8,701 nucleotides of DNA from an uncultured Clostridia bacterium (lineage in GTDB: Bacteria; Bacillota; Clostridia; Oscillospirales; Ruminococcaceae). Of the stretch, positions 1 to 8,387 are shown piece by piece; the stretch's first letter is position 1; each line of letters begins with the position of its first letter. The notes under the pieces are model-generated. The model was not told the origin of the DNA. It searched no databases and worked only from the letters and a program-made list of their open reading frames with translations. The DNA lies in NCBI GenBank assembly GCA_947385505.1, contig CANDLP010000078.1, positions 1 to 8,701 of the forward strand. Direction: 5' to 3'. The translations under genes and the position numbers were made by a program.

Positions 1-2
1 AA

Positions 3-1187
3 GCCCTTTCCGATAGGTGTAGCGGCTTTAAGAGCCTTAGCGTCGAACTGAGGGTGGAGAAGTGTGTCAAGGTTACGGGGATCGATCATAAGAACGGCCT
101 CCTGCTCGGTTCTCATGCCCTCGTCAACCAGATCGCAGGCGATTTTAAGCGCCGCCTGAGCGGTTCTCTTACCGTTACGGGTCTGGAGCATGTAAAGCTT
201 GCCGTGTTCAACGGTAAACTCCATATCCTGCATATCTCTGTAATGATTTTCAAGAGTGGAGCAAACGTCAACAAACTGCTTGAAAGCTTCGGGGAATTTC
301 TGCTCCATTTCGTTGATGTGCATAGGTGTACGAACGCCGGCAACAACGTCTTCGCCCTGTGCATTGGTCAGGAATTCGCCGAAGAGACCCTTTGCGCCGG
401 TCGCGGGGTCGCGGGTGAAGGCAACGCCTGTTCCGCAGTCATCGCCCATATTGCCGAAGGCCATGGACTGAACGTTAACGGCGGTACCCCAAGAATAAGG
501 AATATCGTTGTCGCGGCGGTATACGTTGGCTCTGGGGTTATCCCAAGAACGGAATACTGCCTTTACCGCGCCCATAAGTTGTTCCTTAGGATCGGTGGGG
601 AAATCGTTGCCGATCTTTGTTTTATATTCTGCCTTAAACTGGGTAGCAAGCTCCTTAAGGTCGTCGGCGGACAGTTCAACGTCCTGCTTAACGCCCTTTT
701 CTTCCTTCATCTTGTCGATGAGCTGTTCAAAATATTTCTTTCCGACTTCCATAACAACGTCGGAATACATCTGAATGAATCTTCTGTAGCAGTCCCATGC
801 CCAGCGGGGGTTATTGGACTTTTCGGCCATAACGGCAACAACGTCTTCGTTAAGACCCAGGTTAAGGATAGTGTCCATCATACCGGGCATTGACGCTCTC
901 GCGCCGGAACGAACGGAGACGAGAAGGGGATTCTCCTTGTCGCCGAACTTCTTGCCGACAATTTTTTCCATTTTTTCAATATACTCGTTGATCTCGGCCT
1001 GGATATCCGCATTGATTTCACGGCCGTCTTCATAATACTGTGTACAAGCCTCTGTTGTGATGGTGAAGCCCTGGGGTACGGGAAGACCGATATTGGTCAT
1101 TTCCGCAAGGTTAGCGCCCTTGCCGCCCAGAAGCTCTCTCATGTCAGCATTGCCCTCTGAGAAAAGATAACAATACTTTTTTGCCAT
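3..1187 (-). CDS. ppdK: Pyruvate, phosphate dikinase (PPDK), N-terminal part, cut by the window edge
   Basis: This cytosolic enzyme interconverts pyruvate + ATP + Pi and PEP + AMP + PPi. In many anaerobic clostridia it links PEP and pyruvate in glycolysis or gluconeogenesis. The frame opens with MAKKYCYLFSEGNADMRELL and GGKGANLAEM, typical of the N-terminal ATP-binding domain. It continues with SVRSGARASMPGMMDTILNL (residues 91-110), GAVKAVFRSWDNPRA (206-220), GTGVAFTRDPATG (252-264) and LYMLQTRNGKRT (331-342). Glu323, Gln335 and Arg337 fall at the positions of nucleotide-site residues I recall for the Clostridium symbiosum enzyme. The last visible residues, near 390-395, lie in the linker before the phosphohistidine domain. 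The central His domain and the PEP/pyruvate-binding barrel are therefore outside the window (the family is about 875 residues long). The ATG at 1187 is set by a perfect AGGAGG at 1197-1202. The gene has its own promoter and follows the protease terminator. Identity is very secure; no defect is visible. Confidence 0.97.
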   Translation of the reverse strand, partial: MAKKYCYLFSEGNADMRELLGGKGANLAEMTNIGLPVPQGFTITTEACTQYYEDGREINADIQAEINEYIEKMEKIVGKKFGDKENPLLVSVRSGARASMPGMMDTILNLGLNEDVVAVMAEKSNNPRWAWDCYRRFIQMYSDVVMEVGKKYFEQLIDKMKEEKGVKQDVELSADDLKELATQFKAEYKTKIGNDFPTDPKEQLMGAVKAVFRSWDNPRANVYRRDNDIPYSWGTAVNVQSMAFGNMGDDCGTGVAFTRDPATGAKGLFGEFLTNAQGEDVVAGVRTPMHINEMEQKFPEAFKQFVDVCSTLENHYRDMQDMEFTVEHGKLYMLQTRNGKRTAQAALKIACDLVDEGMRTEQEAVLMIDPRNLDTLLHPQFDAKALKAATPIGKG

Positions 1188-1460: not shown

Positions 1461-4400
1461 TCAGCTTCTGCGCTTCTTTGAAACAAGCACCGCCAGAGCC
1501 GAAACCGCCGCGGGAGCAATAAAGAGGAGCGCGCCGGTATTGATATTCTTATCATCGTTTACGCCGTCAGTGCCGCCTGTATTGCCCGTATTGCCGGTAT
1601 TTTCCGAAGAACCGTTATCGCCGGAATTATCACCGTCAGGTATATCAATATTATCAATATCCTCCACGTTATTTATTCCGCCGTTATCAACATCATCACC
1701 GTTGTCACCGCCATCGGTGGTTACAGCGGGTTCCGAAGTATTCTCCGTATTTTCGCCGGAAACGTCGGTAGTTTCAGAAGGAGCTTCCGTTTCGGTGGAT
1801 TCCTCGGTCGCTGTAGGATCGGTGGATGAATCGCCGCCGGAAGGATATCCGGGCGTGGGATCAGTTATAGCTCCCGCGTCAATCTCAACGTTTTCGGATG
1901 CAAATATGCTCTTGATAACGTCTTCAAGTTCGGGATTCTGCTCAACCAAAGCCTTAACTATACTGTCAAGCTGTTCGGTTACTGTAGAAACGTCAACGGT
2001 TACGATAGGATCAGTTTCTATATTTCCGTCCTCGTCCTTTACAAAAGCGCCGTTTTCGTCGGTCTTGGGAACAGCTTCCAACTTATTGGTGTTATCGGTT
2101 TCGACATTGGTTACGTCAATTCCGCTTTCAGCGGCAAGGGCTTCATTTTCTATTCTGAACATTGCGATTTGCGCAGGTTCGTTTTCGGGAATGATGTAGC
2201 TGGGACTTGCATAAGCCACAATAAGCACGCCCTTTGTTTCATCGATAGTGTAGGAGTTAAATACGCCGTTAATATCGTCTATTCCCCTGAACCGGAACGC
2301 TTCGGGATTGTAATTAACTATAAACATTCCGTTGGTGGATTCTACAGCTTCCTTATTTTCATGAGCCTTAAGCTGAAGCTCAACGTTTCTGCCGGATACC
2401 GTAGCGTCGGAAACGCTTCCTTCGGAAGCGGAATCATCTTCCTCAGCCATAACAGCGATATCGCCGTAAAGGGAGAAAGCTTCCGCAGTTTCGGGAAGGC
2501 TCAGTACGCAATCAAGCTTCTTGCTGATTGAGGAAGCAGATAACGATGCTTCAAATAATTCTTCAGCGGAGCCGGTTTCTGCTGCCGCTTCGGCAGCTTC
2601 GGTATTGTCAAATACATTAAACTCGCTTACAGAAGCCGATTCGGTCATTACCTTAAAGCTGTTGGCGTAAGCCGCCGCTGCGGGTGCATTGGCCGCCGCG
2701 GAAATTATAGCGGCGTGCCATACTCCGTCGCCTGCATTTCCGAAATAAGAAGCTATAGCTCCGTTTTCGTTAAGCGCTATGCGATAGTAATTGGCGGTGT
2801 TTCCGTCAAATACCGAGAGATACAGATAACCGTCTGTGCCGTATGCCAAAGAGCAGTATTCGCCCTTGGAGTTTCCTCCCAGGAAGCCGACGGGCAGTAC
2901 GGAACGGTAAGTATCCCAATATATCGTGCCGTCCGTGAGTACAAAATCCCAAAGATTTCCCGCGTTGTCTATCGCTACAAGCTCCTCGCCGGAAACAGGA
3001 CCGTCTTCGGTATCAATTGTAACAGCGCCGCCGCTGGTGAGGGCAATAAATTTGGACGCGCCGTTACCGGATACGTAAGAAGTGAGATTATATCCGCTTC
3101 CGCTTATATTCATAGGATCGTCGGGAGATAGTATCCAAGCTTCATAAATGCTTGCAAACAATGGAGAGTCGGGTGTGGACTCAACATAGCTGTAAGCCAT
3201 GTCCGCCAGCGGCAGAATAATGCCTGCGCTTTCAATATCCGCGCCCGTTTCGGGATCAATCTTGTGCATAGTGCTGCCGGAATCGCAGATATAAACGTTG
3301 CCCTGTCCGTCAATTGACGCGGATACTATATCTCCGCCAAGTCCGTTTATAGCTGTTGTGCCATTCCATGTGTCGTCGGTCTCAACGTTCCATTCATAGA
3401 ATGTTGGTTTGCCTTCATCGTTCTGCAAAGCGCCGAAAAGAGTGGCTTCCACATTTTCAACGATTACATTACAGGAAGCGTATACTTTTCTGTCGGCGGC
3501 AGCGCTTGCGGTGATTACGCATTCGCCAGCCTTATGAGCGGTGATAGTGCCGTTTGAATCTACCGTCGCTACGCTTGTGTCGGAAGACGACCATACGATT
3601 CCGCGGCTTGTCGCCGTCCAAGGAGTAACATCCGCTTCAAGCTGATATGTTCCATTGGGAACCATAACGGCGGAACCGGTGGAAATATTGACGCCGTATA
3701 CGTCCCTTGTGGGCTTAGACCAAAGTATTGTGCTTAAGAATACATACGCGTCATGCGTATCGAAATCTCCGTCTCCGTCAACGTCAATGTTTTCTATATT
3801 GGAAATTTCGCTTATTGCGCCGGTACGGTAATCTAAGAGAGCCTGTCCGTCCGCCGCATTGACTCTTCCGTCACCGTTAAAGTCATAGTTCTTCGTTTCA
3901 GTCTTGTCGGTAATAATAAGACCGAAGAGACGTGCGCCGATAAACGCTGCGTCAACAAGATCAAAATCGAGAGTCATATTCGCAAGATCAAGATCAATAG
4001 CAAATTCAAGATAATAAGCCGTATTCTGATTGCCTTGTTCGGTTTTTTCGGTTGTGAAGCTGGTCCAGCAGAGGTTATTTGTATTGGGATCCGTCTCCAT
4101 TCCCTGTGCGCCGTTTGTCACGCCGATTCCAAGCTCGCTTATATCAAAGAGAGCCACGGGCTCAAGCGCGTCAAGTGAGAATGCGAACACAATACCGGTG
4201 CCGTACAGGTTGCAGTAGAAAATACCGTCTTTGTCACAGGCTAATGTAACCGTATCGGGAACGTCAGCTATTTTGGTAACCTCGCCGGTAAGCTTGTCGA
4301 TCCTTACAAGGCTGTTATAGCCGGTAACGCCGTAAATCTGCTTATCCTGAGGATTAAATGCCATATCGTCTATACGGACGCCTAAATTGGTTATCCTTAT

Positions 4401-6305
4401 ATAACTGTAAATATCGTCCTCAGGTATTACATATAAGTCATTGTTTTCATCCGCCGCAAAGATAAAGTGATCCGCTATGGTTGCCGAAACAAAGTTTTTG
4501 GGAGCATAAGCGTAAACGTCGAACGGTTTCTGCTGATTTGCGGTATCAATGTAGTTCCAAGCGGTGGAGTTAAGCTTGGAGTTATAGCTGAGAGCAAGCA
4601 TATCCGGATTAGGAAGGTCTTCGCCTATATTCTCGCTGAAACGGTATGTGCTCATGTTGTTGGCATAGTCAGCGGCCTGAATAAGGAACTCTGTGCCCTT
4701 TACTCCGTCAACAGGGATCAGGAATTCACTGGTTTCCCCCGCATTTTCGTCGGGAGAGGAACCTACCTGAGAAATGATCGCGTCGCCGGTCTTATTGTAC
4801 AAGGATACGGCGGCAACATACTGATTGTCCTTTACGGTAACTTTCAGTACATTATTGGCTTCATCAAAGGAAATCTTTGTAATTTCGGGGTTGGTATTAT
4901 CCACTGTGAGAGGAATCTCAAAATAAGCGCCCTCGCCCAGTTTATCCCATGCTGTGACAGTTTCTTCCTCTCCCTCTTCCACATAATATTCGGGAGCAAG
5001 AGTGAATCTAACCGTAAACTTTTCCCCTTCCTTATAGCCAAAAGAGTTGGGGGAGAAGCCCAGATTAAGGGAGTAAGTAGTATTGCGCCATTCGGCCGCA
5101 TTGTCGTAGAAGAAAGCCGCATCTACGGAGCCTGCTTCAATATCGGCGCTCTTTTCGGGATCGTCCTCGCTGATAATCGAAACCATAGAGTTGGCCGCAT
5201 TTCTTATGGCGGTAAAAATTACAGCGCTTACTGCATCGCCGCCGTTTATGGCGTTGCGCTCTTCCATATAGATTTCGTCCATTACAATGGGGTTGCCGCC
5301 TAAAATATAAGTACTTCCGGGATCGCTTGCATATTCAACGCCGAATACGTTTTCGGTCATGCTGCCGAGGTAAGGCACGCGGGTTTCTTCACCGGAAATA
5401 TATTCGATGTAAGAGCCTACGTCGAACATTGAAGGATCGGTCCAGTTTCCGAGGAAGCCTAAGATAGGAATGGAGTGAACTGTGCCTACGGCGCCTTCCT
5501 CATCGGTCAAGCCCTCCGCATAGGTATAGCCTTCGATGTACATTCCCTTGTCAAATACAGACATAAGCGCCTGCATATAAGAATCTGCAAGATCAAGCTC
5601 AACCGAAGCGGTAACCTTTACGGAACCACCTGCGGGAACGGTTATAACGCCGCCCTCATCCACGGTCGTTCCGTTTACGCCGTACTGCGCGCTGTATATC
5701 AGCGGAATAGTGGACGTATACATATAGAAGCTTTCACCGTCGGAAATAGGCATCTGTGTGAACATATCCGTAAAGAGAGCATAATCCTTTGCGGTATCGG
5801 TGAGGTTATTTACGGTAAAGCTAAAGGAATATTTGCCTTCCATATCGGGATCGTCGCCAAGCTCAACCTTTATCTTGCCGTCCTTATAGGAATCGGTAGC
5901 GTCGGCTTCCATAAGAATGTAGCTGTCCGCGTTGATAACGTCGTTGATATTGGCAAGACCGGCGCCCTGCTGGAATACGGAGTAGATGTAATGCTCACCG
6001 TCCTCGGTTCCCATAAGAGGGGAAGCAGTGGACATAAGAAGACTCTGGATAAGTACGCGGGAACTGAGACCTGTCTTTTTCACGAGATCGTTCTCACGTA
6101 TATACTGAGCCGCAAGAGCGGACATACCCGCAACCTGGGGAGACGCCATGGATGTACCGGACATATTTTCATAGGAGGTACCTCCGGGAATCAAACCGTT
6201 GACAGAATATATATTTCCGCCGGGGGCTGTGATTTCTGGTTTAAGCTCCAAAGAACCCGGCATACCCCAGCTTGAGAAATTGCTCATTGTCTGGTATATG
6301 TCCAC
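1461..6305 (-). CDS. C-terminal portion of S8 surface protease: catalytic Ser segment, Fn3/Ig, propeller, dockerin, Big_2, cohesin-like, anchor
   Basis: This is the reading frame after the amber codon, counted from a GTG at 6305 (codon 695 of the whole frame). The GTG is a nominal start; no proper Shine-Dalgarno precedes it, and the coding pattern continues upstream to 6428. Residues 1-120 finish the S8 domain, including PEITAPGGNIYS and the nucleophile motif GTSMASPQVAGM (Ser52, codon 746, DNA 6150-6152). Residues about 144-240 resemble the Fn3-like domain of C5a peptidase. Residues 255-295 contain the lactocepin-like segment SIPILGFLGNWTDPSMFD. An Ig-like domain (about 460-560) follows. Propeller-like strands occupy about 600-800, a dockerin 806-862, Big_2 868-950, more propeller-like strands 955-1200 and a cohesin-like domain 1300-1412. 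The end is an acidic Ser/Thr/Asp/Gly linker and a hydrophobic segment followed by SKKRRS. Alone it lacks a signal peptide and the catalytic Asp and His, so it should not work as a separate enzyme. Confidence 0.85.
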   Translation of the reverse strand: MDIYQTMSNFSSWGMPGSLELKPEITAPGGNIYSVNGLIPGGTSYENMSGTSMASPQVAGMSALAAQYIRENDLVKKTGLSSRVLIQSLLMSTASPLMGTEDGEHYIYSVFQQGAGLANINDVINADSYILMEADATDSYKDGKIKVELGDDPDMEGKYSFSFTVNNLTDTAKDYALFTDMFTQMPISDGESFYMYTSTIPLIYSAQYGVNGTTVDEGGVITVPAGGSVKVTASVELDLADSYMQALMSVFDKGMYIEGYTYAEGLTDEEGAVGTVHSIPILGFLGNWTDPSMFDVGSYIEYISGEETRVPYLGSMTENVFGVEYASDPGSTYILGGNPIVMDEIYMEERNAINGGDAVSAVIFTAIRNAANSMVSIISEDDPEKSADIEAGSVDAAFFYDNAAEWRNTTYSLNLGFSPNSFGYKEGEKFTVRFTLAPEYYVEEGEEETVTAWDKLGEGAYFEIPLTVDNTNPEITKISFDEANNVLKVTVKDNQYVAAVSLYNKTGDAIISQVGSSPDENAGETSEFLIPVDGVKGTEFLIQAADYANNMSTYRFSENIGEDLPNPDMLALSYNSKLNSTAWNYIDTANQQKPFDVYAYAPKNFVSATIADHFIFAADENNDLYVIPEDDIYSYIRITNLGVRIDDMAFNPQDKQIYGVTGYNSLVRIDKLTGEVTKIADVPDTVTLACDKDGIFYCNLYGTGIVFAFSLDALEPVALFDISELGIGVTNGAQGMETDPNTNNLCWTSFTTEKTEQGNQNTAYYLEFAIDLDLANMTLDFDLVDAAFIGARLFGLIITDKTETKNYDFNGDGRVNAADGQALLDYRTGAISEISNIENIDVDGDGDFDTHDAYVFLSTILWSKPTRDVYGVNISTGSAVMVPNGTYQLEADVTPWTATSRGIVWSSSDTSVATVDSNGTITAHKAGECVITASAAADRKVYASCNVIVENVEATLFGALQNDEGKPTFYEWNVETDDTWNGTTAINGLGGDIVSASIDGQGNVYICDSGSTMHKIDPETGADIESAGIILPLADMAYSYVESTPDSPLFASIYEAWILSPDDPMNISGSGYNLTSYVSGNGASKFIALTSGGAVTIDTEDGPVSGEELVAIDNAGNLWDFVLTDGTIYWDTYRSVLPVGFLGGNSKGEYCSLAYGTDGYLYLSVFDGNTANYYRIALNENGAIASYFGNAGDGVWHAAIISAAANAPAAAAYANSFKVMTESASVSEFNVFDNTEAAEAAAETGSAEELFEASLSASSISKKLDCVLSLPETAEAFSLYGDIAVMAEEDDSASEGSVSDATVSGRNVELQLKAHENKEAVESTNGMFIVNYNPEAFRFRGIDDINGVFNSYTIDETKGVLIVAYASPSYIIPENEPAQIAMFRIENEALAAESGIDVTNVETDNTNKLEAVPKTDENGAFVKDEDGNIETDPIVTVDVSTVTEQLDSIVKALVEQNPELEDVIKSIFASENVEIDAGAITDPTPGYPSGGDSSTDPTATEESTETEAPSETTDVSGENTENTSEPAVTTDGGDNGDDVDNGGINNVEDIDNIDIPDGDNSGDNGSSENTGNTGNTGGTDGVNDDKNINTGALLFIAPAAVSALAVLVSKKRRS
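1464..1553 (-). other. C-terminal cell-surface sorting signal, non-LPXTG variant
   Basis: The protein ends with DKNINTG, a hydrophobic segment LLFIAPAAVSALAVLV and the basic tail SKKRRS. This is the three-part layout of a sortase substrate. The motif NINTG resembles the NPxTG-type signals of some clostridia rather than LPXTG. If no matching sortase exists, the segment would act as a simple C-terminal membrane anchor. A sortase gene is not in the window. Confidence 0.6.
1554..1862 (-). other. Acidic, Thr/Ser/Gly/Asn-rich wall-spanning linker
   Basis: About 100 residues before the anchor are dominated by Thr, Ser, Glu, Asp, Asn and Gly, with runs such as ATEESTETEAPSETTDVSG and the short repeats GNTGNTGGTDG. 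Low-complexity linkers of this kind commonly extend surface proteins through the peptidoglycan. The Asp/Asn/Gly-rich part could bind calcium, but no regular RTX nonapeptide is present. Confidence 0.7.
2070..2408 (-). other. Cohesin-like domain
   Basis: Residues about 1300-1412 after the 6305 GTG follow the cohesin strand pattern. There is NVELQLKAHEN, then GMFIVNYNPEAFRFRGID, then GVLIVAYASPSYIIPENEP and AQIAMFRIENEAL, ending with VTNVETDNTNKLE. This resembles cohesin and related carbohydrate-binding-like jelly-roll folds, in which a strand with YxPxxF and a later GxxxVAYA are typical. Assignment is by pattern only; a CBM-like or other beta-sandwich is possible. Confidence 0.5.
3456..3704 (-). 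other. Bacterial Ig-like domain, group 2 (Big_2)
   Basis: The segment shows the Big_2 signature in order: VPNGTYQLEADVTPWTA, then IVWSSSDTSVATVDSNGTIT, then HKAGECVITASAA and a closing strand YASCNVIVE. Such domains occur in bacterial surface proteins as spacers or adhesive modules. It follows the dockerin after about six residues, which makes a dockerin-Big_2 unit. Confidence 0.88.
3720..3890 (-). other. Dockerin type I-like domain (internal)
   Basis: Two calcium-binding loop-helix repeats are visible. The first is YDFNGDGRVNAADGQALLDY, the second IDVDGDGDFDTHDAYVFLS. Each has the Dx(N/D)xDGxxxxxD loop followed by a helix, the classic duplicated F-hand of dockerins, which bind cohesin domains in cellulosome-like assemblies. 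Here it lies at residues about 806-862 after the 6305 GTG, in the middle of the protein rather than at its end. The calcium ligands look intact. The binding partner cannot be told from sequence. Confidence 0.8.
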
Positions 6306-6362
6306 CTCTTCGGGTGAAACCGAGATTGAGTCTGTGCTTATTATTAATGACGCTGCATAACC

Positions 6363-6593
6363 TGCGGGCGCATCAGCGGCAGTGTCTGCAGCGGGTTCGG
6401 CGGGAATTTCCGTACTTTCCGCAGAATCCTATGTGATTTCTTCGGAAGTTTCTTCATCGGTCACTTCATCAGCTGCTTCTGTAATCTCTTCGGGTGTTCC
6501 CTCGACTGCCGCCGTATCCTCTGTGGTTTCATCGGGTTCAGCAGTCTCTTCGGGCGTCTCAGCGGCTGTTTCGCTTTCCGTCTCTTCCAAAGC
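6363..6593 (-). other. Acidic Glu/Thr/Ala-rich low-complexity insertion inside the catalytic domain
   Basis: Codons about 599-675 are almost entirely Glu, Thr, Ala, Asp, Ser and Pro, with repeated short units such as ETAAETPEETAEP, TPEEIT and EETSEEIT, and no aromatic residues. It lies between the PA domain and the strand GYAASLIISTDS that resumes the S8 fold. Such tracts are usually disordered linkers between domains. Finding one inside a protease catalytic domain is unusual. The amber codon falls about two thirds of the way along it. The composition resembles the C-terminal linker of the same protein. Confidence 0.75.
6429..6431 (-). other. In-frame amber (TAG) codon, codon 653 of the protease frame
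   Basis: The minus strand reads GAA ATC ACA TAG GAT TCT, giving EIT-stop-DS. Acidic low-complexity coding continues in the same frame on both sides. The codon separates Asp211, His311 and Asn422 from Ser746. A single base change from GAG, CAG, AAG, TCG or TAC/TAT could create it. The base after the stop is G, so it does not match the classic leaky UAG-CARYYA context. The frame's own terminator is TGA, so the window gives no evidence on how TAG is read elsewhere in this genome. Confidence 0.9.
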
Positions 6594-8387
6594 GTTGCCG
6601 GCCGCGGGAGCAACCGGGGTACCGTTTGCAACGGCGTATGCTCTCAAAACAGCGCCGGCTTCCTTAGTTATGGAAACATAAGGATTTTTGAAATTATAAC
6701 CCTCGGCTCCCATATTTACGGTGCCGGGCGCATTGTTATATACTATTGTGGCAATTGCTCCGTATTTAACCGCATTATTGGCTTTTTCCACAAAGTTTAT
6801 TTCACCGCGGGAACATACTGCGATTCTGCTCTTAAGGGAATTGCCCAGCGCCGCCCAGTCCTCTTCGGTGCCAAAACCGTCTATAAATACATATTCAACG
6901 GGTTTTCCGGACAATGTAACAAGAGGATCGTAAGTATCGGGACTTTCGCTGTAGAACATTTTTTCGTCGCCCACTTGAATGTAGCGGCCGGTCGCACCTT
7001 CGTTGTCAACGGAAGCTACGGTAAGGGCGTTGGTATAGGATCCGGGGCTGCCGTCAGTCTGCATGCTTACATCATCGCTGTAAAGCAAGCCTGTCTTGCT
7101 GCTTGCCGCCCAGTAACCTGAATTGCCGGCGGAGAAAGCAACTACCACACCGCTGTTTGTCAGGTTATCCATGATTTCCTGATACTTCTTGACGGAGCAT
7201 CTGGAGGTTCCGGGGTTGCCGCTGCCCAAAGACAGGTTGACGGAGTCCGCCTTAAGTACGATGGCGTCTTCAATGGCAACCATATAGTCGGAATCATAAG
7301 CTCCGCCGCCCTTGCCGAACACCTTCATGGTGATAAGCTGAGCGTCGGGCGCTACGCCCTGTGTCAGCGCCATGGAATAATCAAGCGCCTTAACGAACTC
7401 GCCGTCCGCTTCAATATAGCGGTTTGCGGTGGCAATGCCGGCAACGTGGGAGCCGTGTTCGCCCTGCTTATCATTGTCATGGTTTATGTCATAATCGCTG
7501 TCTACATAGTTGTATGCAAAAGGAAGCTTGGCGTTAAGATATGCCTGTTCGGTTATGGGCATAACGGAGTTTTGACCGTTATACGCCGTGCCGGCGTTAA
7601 GCTTGTCCTTTACGGAGTCAATCTCTTCCCATGTAAGAAGATTTAAGCTCTCCGCGTATTCTTCAAAGGTTAAGCCCTTGTCCTCAGCAAGCTCTTCCAG
7701 CGCGTGGAGGTAGCCTTCCTCGCTGAAGGATTGGTGATCGTCGTCCGTACCGGTATCGATGATCGCTATTCTTGTGCCCGCTCCTGTATAGCCGGTGTCC
7801 CATGCGCCTTGGGAACCGATCTGCATGGATGATGTGGCCATATCGGGGTCAACGGGGAGGGTATCTTTAATTACGTCGGGGTAATACTGAGTTTCTATAA
7901 GAACCTCTTCTACCTCCTCCAACGCTTCGATCTCCTCGATCTGTCCGTACTCCACATTTGCCGAAATAATATTTGCGGCAAGGGTAAGATTCCAGACAAC
8001 GTCCAGATCTTCATCGATAACGCTTTCGATTTCGTTTACAACATTTGCCTGCTTGTCCTGAAGAACACTGCGATAGCTCATCGCGGCGGAGTTTTCGGCT
8101 ATGTTTTCGATATCATAGCCCATGTCCACCGTGTTTTCGATGGTGGATTTGTCCTTCAGAACAATGGAAACGCGGACCACGTCGGTATCCAGATAGGACG
8201 GCGCGCCGCTTTCCGTATCAAGCTCTCTGTCGGTAGAAGGCTTGACGGAAACACTGTTGCCGCTCACCTGCTTAAAATCGATGGAGCTGCTGTCGTCCGC
8301 AAGGGCGCTGAAAGTCAGGCTGTTAACGGTAACGGCAGCTGCCAGCGATACGGCAAGTATGCGCTTTAACAGAGGCTTTTTTTCCAT
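6429..8387 (-). CDS. N-terminal portion of secreted S8 (subtilisin/lactocepin-like) protease, ending at an amber codon
   Basis: This encodes a secreted serine endopeptidase of the S8 family, cut at residue 652. A signal peptide (KKPLLKR, hydrophobic core, cleavage probably after ALA at 30) is followed by an I9-like propeptide (about 68-168). The catalytic domain then shows Asp211 in IAIIDTGTDDDH, His311 in EHGSHVAGIATA, SVNLSLGSG (382-390) and oxyanion Asn422 in VVVAFSAGNSG. Asp and His are 100 residues apart, far more than in simple subtilisins, with a charged helical insertion at about 222-262. A PA domain follows at about 465-585 (RIAVCSRGEINFVEKANN, IATIVYNNAPG). The fragment stops inside an acidic Glu/Thr/Ala-rich tail and lacks the catalytic serine, which lies downstream in the same frame. 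The ATG at 8387 is fixed by AAGGAGA at 8397-8403, 9 nt upstream, and by the signal peptide right after it. Family assignment is secure; natural substrates are not readable from sequence. Confidence 0.9.
   Translation of the reverse strand: MEKKPLLKRILAVSLAAAVTVNSLTFSALADDSSSIDFKQVSGNSVSVKPSTDRELDTESGAPSYLDTDVVRVSIVLKDKSTIENTVDMGYDIENIAENSAAMSYRSVLQDKQANVVNEIESVIDEDLDVVWNLTLAANIISANVEYGQIEEIEALEEVEEVLIETQYYPDVIKDTLPVDPDMATSSMQIGSQGAWDTGYTGAGTRIAIIDTGTDDDHQSFSEEGYLHALEELAEDKGLTFEEYAESLNLLTWEEIDSVKDKLNAGTAYNGQNSVMPITEQAYLNAKLPFAYNYVDSDYDINHDNDKQGEHGSHVAGIATANRYIEADGEFVKALDYSMALTQGVAPDAQLITMKVFGKGGGAYDSDYMVAIEDAIVLKADSVNLSLGSGNPGTSRCSVKKYQEIMDNLTNSGVVVAFSAGNSGYWAASSKTGLLYSDDVSMQTDGSPGSYTNALTVASVDNEGATGRYIQVGDEKMFYSESPDTYDPLVTLSGKPVEYVFIDGFGTEEDWAALGNSLKSRIAVCSRGEINFVEKANNAVKYGAIATIVYNNAPGTVNMGAEGYNFKNPYVSITKEAGAVLRAYAVANGTPVAPAAGNALEETESETAAETPEETAEPDETTEDTAAVEGTPEEITEAADEVTDEETSEEIT
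6618..6995 (-). other. PA (protease-associated) domain inserted in the S8 domain
   Basis: Residues about 465-590 of the protease match the PA domain pattern found in lactocepins and C5a peptidases. Visible are a strand with RIAVCSRGE, the helix NFVEKANNAVKYGA, then IATIVYNN and the closing PYVSITKEAGAVLRAYA. In this family the PA domain sits between the oxyanion Asn and the catalytic Ser and influences substrate access. Here its end runs directly into the acidic insertion that holds the amber codon. Confidence 0.8.

What the first reader, a model, noticed from the sequence alone, without database searches (positions are those of the whole stretch)
6429..6431. Single in-frame amber codon separates the catalytic Ser from the Asp/His of a giant surface protease
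Seen: the frame from 8387 to 1461 has one internal stop, TAG at codon 653, and the pieces on both sides are in the same frame and rebuild one normal lactocepin-like protein. Asp211, His311 and Asn422 lie before it, Ser746 after it. No further stop has accumulated in 1,655 downstream codons. Options are translational readthrough or an amber suppressor giving a low level of full-length enzyme, a very recent nonsense mutation, a mixed population in a metagenome assembly, or a sequencing error. The stop lies in low-complexity sequence, where almost any inserted residue would be tolerated, which would suit regulated readthrough.
Basis: partly seen in the sequence, partly recalled or inferred. Interest (0 to 1): 0.72.

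Follow-up and report, generated by a model that had tools for sequence, protein, structure and literature searches.

The report
Recent stop in a giant protease
An uncultured bacterium's giant surface protease gene carries one in-frame stop codon before its catalytic serine, most likely a very recent disabling mutation (an assembly error would look the same) rather than a special decoding mechanism, because different stops interrupt two other conserved genes in the same draft genome.

Summary
Asp211, His311 and Asn422 lie before the stop, Ser746 after it. The stop is private: 11 of 11 related places in 59 other congeneric genomes show none, and 1 of 150 listed subtilase rows from 396 family genomes has one, the window's own. 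RF1 is present, PylS absent, no CUA tRNA seen, though the tRNA set is incomplete. Most telling, the same draft genome has an in-frame TAA in flgK and a TGA near the end of a dihydroorotase gene, so nothing here is amber-specific. Conserved positions are kept on both sides and no second stop exists, so the TAG is younger than about 1.3% neutral divergence or is not real. Best reading: a recent nonsense allele, predicted to give a secreted stump without Ser or anchor; a consensus error in a 415-contig MAG cannot be excluded without reads. Ordinary.

The parts
6429..6431 (-). in-frame TAG, codon 653 of the protease frame
6429..8387 (-). N-terminal open frame, 652 aa: signal-like N-terminus (by eye), first part of the S8 catalytic domain with Asp211, His311, Asn422, and the inserted PA domain
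1461..6428 (-). in-frame continuation, 1,655 codons plus TGA: rest of the S8 domain with Ser746, weak Fn3-like match, dockerin, Big_2, C-terminal tail
6363..6602 (-). acidic low-complexity linker that joins the PA domain to the serine-bearing part; holds the TAG; variable in length and sequence in the 13 relatives compared
   Evidence: borders by eye
7755..7757 (-). catalytic Asp211 codon
   Evidence: invariant D211
7455..7457 (-). catalytic His311 codon
   Evidence: invariant H311
7122..7124 (-). oxyanion Asn422 codon
   Evidence: invariant N422
6150..6152 (-). catalytic Ser746 codon (S93 of the downstream piece)
   Evidence: nearly invariant
3744..3887 (-). Dockerin_1 match
   Evidence: 26.2 bits, cut-off 22.9
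3501..3701 (-). Big_2 match
   Evidence: 42.9 bits, cut-off 22.8
1464..1553 (-). C-terminal tail DKNINTG + hydrophobic stretch + KKRRS, a sorting/anchor-like end; similar tails in other own proteins
   Evidence: two similar tails printed

Best explanation
The TAG is likely a very recent nonsense mutation, carried by the sampled strain or part of its population, in an otherwise intact lactocepin-like surface protease gene. It falls in a variable acidic linker between the PA insert and the serine-bearing part of the catalytic domain. Shown: the stop, the open frame on both sides, intact relatives, conservation on both sides, RF1 present, other kinds of stop inside two other genes of the same draft genome. 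Inferred: ordinary RF1 termination at the TAG would yield a secreted 652-residue stump with Asp, His and Asn but no Ser, dockerin or anchor, and so no protease activity; any downstream product begun at a later GTG/ATG would lack a signal peptide. The most plausible fate is reversal or loss; no special decoding is needed.
For: Stop private: in 59 other congeneric genomes the 11 non-own places found show no stop inside, 9 of the 11 in open frames of 1,983 aa or more; 13 of 13 aligned database relatives run through the linker (three of them share one linker, and database proteins are ORFs by construction, so the genome search is the fairer test). Young: no second stop although 712 single changes would make one, which bounds neutral divergence since the TAG at about 0.013 per site (95%, equal rates assumed). 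Deviations at columns invariant in the 11 others are 5 of 226 before and 4 of 289 after the stop, within the range of five intact relatives (1-5 of 222-226 and 1-18 of 286-303); after the stop the window's branch from the common node is 0.126, its two sisters' 0.104 and 0.140. Not amber-specific: flgK of the same genome is cut by TAA (halves match TIGR02492 at positions 3-91 and 95-314; 5 of 5 relatives compared have no stop there), and a dihydroorotase-like gene by TGA 15 codons before the next stop of its frame, with those codons still similar to the relative. 0 of 65 ABC matches in the own genome hold a stop.
Against: No reads, so a consensus error is not excluded; three sporadic nonsense codons in about 31% of a 415-contig draft with 0 frameshift-like breaks among 153 gene pairs also suit substitution errors. 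Before the stop the window's branch (0.112) is longer than its sisters' (0.042 and 0.061, weakly resolved), and at columns invariant in its five closest relatives it deviates more than its two nearest sisters on both sides (18 of 385 against 10 of 377 and 7 of 374; 27 of 549 against 7 of 529 and 8 of 530); the last 405 residues deviate at 5 of 33 columns invariant in the 11 others (1-4 of 29-32 in five relatives). This could mean somewhat weaker constraint for longer. No second strain of this species was found, so polymorphism is not shown.
Confidence: 0.58

Rival explanations
1. Consensus or assembly error in a fragmented metagenome bin: the organism's gene is intact and the TAG is not in the cell.
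For: G000 is an 87.5% complete draft in 415 contigs; three sporadic interior stops of three kinds in 61 stretches (792 kb) would need a per-base rate near 1.3e-4 if all were errors; only substitutions, 0 of 153 frameshift-like breaks. In the reverse comparison all 5 stops flagged in 169 places of relatives lie at query positions 14-58 near the start of the frame and were judged to lie before the true start.
Against: Real nonsense alleles give the same picture; counts are tiny and the window was preselected; no reads or second assembly seen. The database cluster of the downstream product (P0121) is said to hold 3 member sequences, which I could not inspect.
Confidence: 0.31
2. Translational readthrough or amber suppression yields a low, perhaps regulated amount of full-length protease.
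For: Both sides of the stop are conserved; the stop lies in a linker that would tolerate almost any residue (inferred); the tRNA matches in this draft are few (15), so a suppressor could be missing. A 171-nt piece around the stop folds better than most shuffles (z -2.28, 3 of 200 as good), and the 120-nt window that begins 81 nt after the stop ranks 8th of 114 by z. Belinky et al. 2021 argue that readthrough of in-frame stops is widespread in prokaryotes.
Against: Stop not conserved; RF1 present; PylS absent; no CUA among 14 own and 27 sister tRNAs typed; of 5 same-frame TAG junctions in 61 stretches the 4 others have a start codon 1-5 codons on and look like gene borders; the two windows that hold the stop rank 22nd and 79th of 114 by z; two other genes are cut by TAA and TGA. 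Belinky et al. themselves assume that most such stops have no functional recoding.
Confidence: 0.06
3. The two pieces are made separately and reassemble (split protease).
For: First start codon 41 codons and first ATG 47 codons after the stop; the database holds a 1,608-aa downstream product (P0121).
Against: No signal peptide seen on the downstream piece (by eye); no relative examined has this arrangement; the stop is too young for an evolved split.
Confidence: 0.02
4. An old pseudogene under neutral decay.
For: The stop removes the serine and the anchor; the window deviates at conserved columns more often than its two nearest sisters.
Against: No further stop or frame break in 2,308 codons; 0 of 153 invariant columns of the catalytic part after the stop changed.
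Confidence: 0.02

Closest known systems
In-frame nonsense codons of bacterial genes (Belinky et al. 2021, PMC7918605; abstract, part 1 of Results and part 1 of Discussion read)
   Same: Single in-frame stop, coding sequence on both sides under selection, short-lived on the scale of population polymorphism; the authors also warn that many detected stops may be artefacts.
   Different: Their large set was restricted to stops shared by orthologues of two or more species, and they lean to frequent readthrough; here the stop is seen in one draft genome only.
Lactocepin / C5a-peptidase-type cell-envelope S8 proteases (solved: 7edd, 5xya, 6vjb)
   Same: S8 catalytic domain with PA insert, very large, weak Fn3-like match after the catalytic domain, C-terminal anchor-like tail.
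   Different: Dockerin and Big_2 domains, acidic linker, tail reading NINTG; here cut by a stop. Best E 1.1e-25 (N-terminal piece) and 4.1e-21 (C-terminal piece).
Code-15 phages (search listing only) and PylS/tRNA-Pyl amber decoding (recalled)
   Same: TAG inside reading frames.
   Different: Those carry many in-frame TAGs with a CUA tRNA, or PylS; here one TAG, RF1 present, no PylS found.

Membership tests
S8 cell-envelope protease (lactocepin-like) | Peptidase_S8 domain with Asp/His/Ser and PA insert | tested here: met
   but split by the TAG
S8 cell-envelope protease (lactocepin-like) | Fn3-like domain after the catalytic domain | tested here: inconclusive
   fn3_5 23.9 bits, below the cut-off 27.6; several relatives are listed with PF06280
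S8 cell-envelope protease (lactocepin-like) | curated NCBIfam model of an anchored S8 protease | tested here: not met
   NF040553 86.9 and 99.6 bits for the two pieces, cut-off 1400; pieces were scored apart
Programmed stop-codon readthrough | stop conserved in relatives | tested here: not met
Programmed stop-codon readthrough | stimulatory RNA structure just after the stop | tested here: inconclusive
   z -2.28 for one 171-nt piece; windows around the stop rank 8-79 of 114 under codon shuffling
Programmed stop-codon readthrough | full-length product made | not testable with these tools
   needs proteomics or reporter
Amber suppression / TAG recoding | CUA tRNA or PylS | tested here: inconclusive
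   PylS not found; no CUA in 14 own tRNAs and 27 of G008, but the own tRNA set is incomplete
Amber suppression / TAG recoding | RF1 lost or TAG avoided as terminator | tested here: not met
   prfA present, 507.8 bits; 58 of 641 terminated coding segments end in TAG, the window's own counted
Amber suppression / TAG recoding | many genes with in-frame TAG | tested here: not met
   0 of 65 ABC matches; of the 9 stops flagged in 153 own places the window's is the only TAG (about 31% of the genome)
Recent nonsense allele | relatives intact and both sides conserved | tested here: met
Recent nonsense allele | present in reads / polymorphic | not testable with these tools
   no reads held

The most novel reading that the evidence does not exclude
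The TAG is a natural throttle: near-cognate or suppressor tRNAs read it at a low rate in the tolerant acidic linker, so the cell makes trace amounts of an active 2,300-residue protease and an excess of a secreted serine-less stump that could act as a decoy or inhibitor.
Probability: 0.05. Interest if true: 0.55.

Novelty: new member of a known kind. Interest (0 to 1): 0.14.

Why it matters
Mainly as a caution: one in-frame stop in an otherwise perfect gene of a metagenome bin is to be expected now and then, and a look for other kinds of stop in the same genome (here TAA in flgK, TGA in a dihydroorotase gene) is a quick way to tell sporadic nonsense or consensus error from real recoding. If readthrough were shown, it would be an unusual bacterial case of translation-level control of a giant surface enzyme.

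Tried and rejected
PylS and CUA tRNA: none found. For G008 I gave ARAGORN 16 of the 28 tRNA loci; by their coordinates the other 12 lie inside those stretches. Structure around the stop: a fairly stable downstream hairpin that is not outstanding within this gene. The first interior-stop scan was swamped by shadow ORFs on the opposite strand; I dropped it and repeated it with coding-filtered ORFs. In one search, 5 of the 9 own stops lie at query positions 13-37, near the start of the frame, and I judged them to lie before the true start (not tested further); 2 more (L062) are in a 38%-identity match and are not counted as evidence; the window's TAG and the L068 TGA remain. All 5 stops flagged in relatives lie at query positions 14-58 and were judged the same way. 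Of the 53 same-frame neighbour pairs, five with late start codons were checked by Pfam: two (L065, L056) are pairs of different families, L057 is the broken flgK, L064 and L073 stayed undecided; a sixth (L097) gave no NCBIfam match on either side; the rest were judged by their early start codons or left. Nucleotide dN/dS was not done: relatives with DNA at hand are 60% identical or less in protein, too far for dS. Same-species copies: among the best 120 listed of each search, none above 82% identity to the N-terminal piece in the alignment or above 76% over the C-terminal piece apart from the window's own product. Paper searches: searches found 0 papers; others gave listings that I did not follow; I looked at passages of one paper (PMC8629427).

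Full report
Observation. The 652-codon ORF 8387-6429 (-) ends at TAG 6429-6431, and the same frame continues open for 1,655 codons to TGA 1461-1463. Pfam finds the first part of Peptidase_S8 (profile 1-182) and the PA domain before the stop, and S8 165-274, Dockerin_1 and Big_2 after it. It is the only S8 match reported in the genome, and the tool reports one TAG inside it.

Setting. The window is contig C78 of a draft genome of 2.57 Mb in 415 contigs, 87.5% complete. The relatives that bear names are uncultured MAGs; I did not place the organism further.

Relatives. One search covered 60 genomes of the genus, the own one among them; 10 match the N-terminal piece, the own one counted. The 11 non-own places show no stop inside; 9 of them lie in open frames of 1,983 aa or more, one (G016) runs to near its contig end, one (G006) is a weak match. 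With the C-terminal piece 8 of 71 genomes match at E 1e-60, the own one counted. In the protein database the nearest full-length relatives are 2,309 and 2,302 aa at 76% and 73%; the whole frame here is 2,308 codons. The 13 relatives aligned carry a linker of the same kind, differing in sequence and length, with no stop; three of the 13 (P0001, P0002, P0123) have one and the same linker, and database proteins cannot contain stops by construction, so the six-frame genome searches carry more weight.

Age. On 12 taxa the window's branch after the stop (residues 48-1250 of that piece) is 0.126, while its sisters P0122 and P0123 are 0.104 and 0.140 from the same node. Before the stop (residues 1-590) it is 0.112, against 0.042 and 0.061, in a tree weakly resolved there (support 57). 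So there is no excess of change after the stop; the excess, if real, is before it. At columns invariant in the 11 others the window deviates at 5 of 226 (before) and 4 of 289 (after); five intact relatives deviate at 1-5 of 222-226 and 1-18 of 286-303. In the catalytic part after the stop it deviates at 0 of 153. Signs against: at columns invariant in its five closest relatives it deviates at 18 of 385 and 27 of 549, its two nearest sisters at 10 of 377 and 7 of 374, and 7 of 529 and 8 of 530; and the last 405 residues deviate at 5 of 33 against 1-4 of 29-32 (all). There are 712 single changes that would make another stop; none seen bounds neutral divergence since the TAG at about 0.013 per site, equal rates assumed.

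Decoding machinery. RF1 is present at 507.8 bits, PylS not found. Rfam finds 15 tRNA matches in the own genome; ARAGORN types 14, none CUA; the set is far from complete. In the relative G008 there are 28 matches, 27 typed, none CUA. TAG ends 58 of 641 terminated coding segments in 61 stretches, the window's internal stop counted.

Other stops in the same genome. In 61 stretches (792 kb) I found 53 same-frame neighbours one stop apart, 5 of them at TAG. The 4 other TAG junctions have a start codon 1-5 codons later and look like ordinary gene borders. One TAA junction is not: in contig C2 (L057) the 110-codon upstream piece and the 281-codon downstream piece match TIGR02492 FlgK at positions 3-91 and 95-314, are 87% and 82% identical to G008, and 5 of 5 relatives compared run through without a stop. 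A comparison with 506 reference genes from G008 and G014 stretches and the protease loci gave 153 places in the own genome with 9 stops flagged: the window's TAG; a TGA in a dihydroorotase-like gene of C13 (L068), 15 codons before the next stop of its frame, those codons still similar to the relative; 5 near the start of the frame that I judged to lie before the true start; and 2 in a weak match. In the reverse direction 169 places in relatives had 5 stops flagged, all near the start of the frame and judged the same way. Frameshift-like breaks: 0 of 153 and 0 of 158 gene-subject pairs. 0 of 65 ABC matches in the own genome hold a stop. So interior stops in this draft are few, sporadic and of all three kinds, which is what nonsense alleles or substitution errors give and not what amber decoding gives.

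RNA context. One 171-nt piece around the stop has z -2.28, 3 of 200 shuffles folding as well. Along the gene, 120-nt windows around the stop rank 8th to 79th of 114 by z under codon shuffling; the two that hold the stop rank 22nd and 79th, the 8th begins 81 nt after it. This is no strong case for a programmed signal.

Mechanism. Termination at the TAG would give a secreted stump with two of the three catalytic residues and the PA domain, no serine, no dockerin, no anchor-like tail (inferred). The tail DKNINTG...KKRRS resembles those of other own proteins. A downstream start (first start codon 41, first ATG 47 codons after the stop) would give a piece without signal peptide. I therefore expect no protease activity from this allele.

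Known context. Belinky et al. 2021 (PMC7918605; abstract, part 1 of Results and part 1 of Discussion read) report that in-frame stops in bacterial genes are widespread, lie in sequences under purifying selection and mostly persist on the scale of population polymorphism. They lean to frequent readthrough, which speaks for the rival reading, but assume that most such stops have no functional recoding, and they expect artefacts among them. This case fits that kind. Reads are the missing evidence between a real allele and an error.

Noticed in passing
L057 (G000:C2) 1-1176 (-), TAA at 844-846: flgK, a flagellar hook-associated protein gene, is interrupted by an in-frame TAA; both halves match TIGR02492 and 5 of 5 relatives compared have no stop.
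   Followed up: yes
L068 (G000:C13) 13762-13764 (+): Dihydroorotase-like gene is cut by a TGA 15 codons before the next stop of its frame, with those codons still similar to the relative's (the relative's gene named).
   Followed up: partly
L062 (G000:C7) 12006 and 12117 (+): Two in-frame stops in a weak (38%) match to a repeat protein of a relative; maybe a decayed gene.
   Followed up: no
proteins P0010, P0019, P0024, P0058, P0118: N-terminal relatives of 617-692 aa lose the expected frame around the PA-to-serine junction (by eye), two of them on contigs over 100 kb, as if frameshifted; broken copies of this protease type may be common in databases. The search's length filter favours short forms, so this is no rate.
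   Followed up: no
L034 1501-1575 and L145 1501-1564: tRNA-like matches of 33 bits in G000 and G008 that ARAGORN does not call.
   Followed up: no
P0131 / G008:C50: A database protein named Bacteroides sp. lies on a contig of the same length (27,371) as G008:C50, a congener of this Oscillospiraceae-like genome; the name looks wrong.
   Followed up: no
window 3-1187 (-) and 1304-1341: Pyruvate phosphate dikinase-like gene downstream (recalled from its sequence, not tested), and a 20-base unit repeated 1.9 times between it and the protease gene.
   Followed up: no
The window's downstream product is in the protein database (P0121, 1,608 aa, cluster of 3 members) but its 652-aa upstream product is not among the 120 listed.
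   Followed up: no
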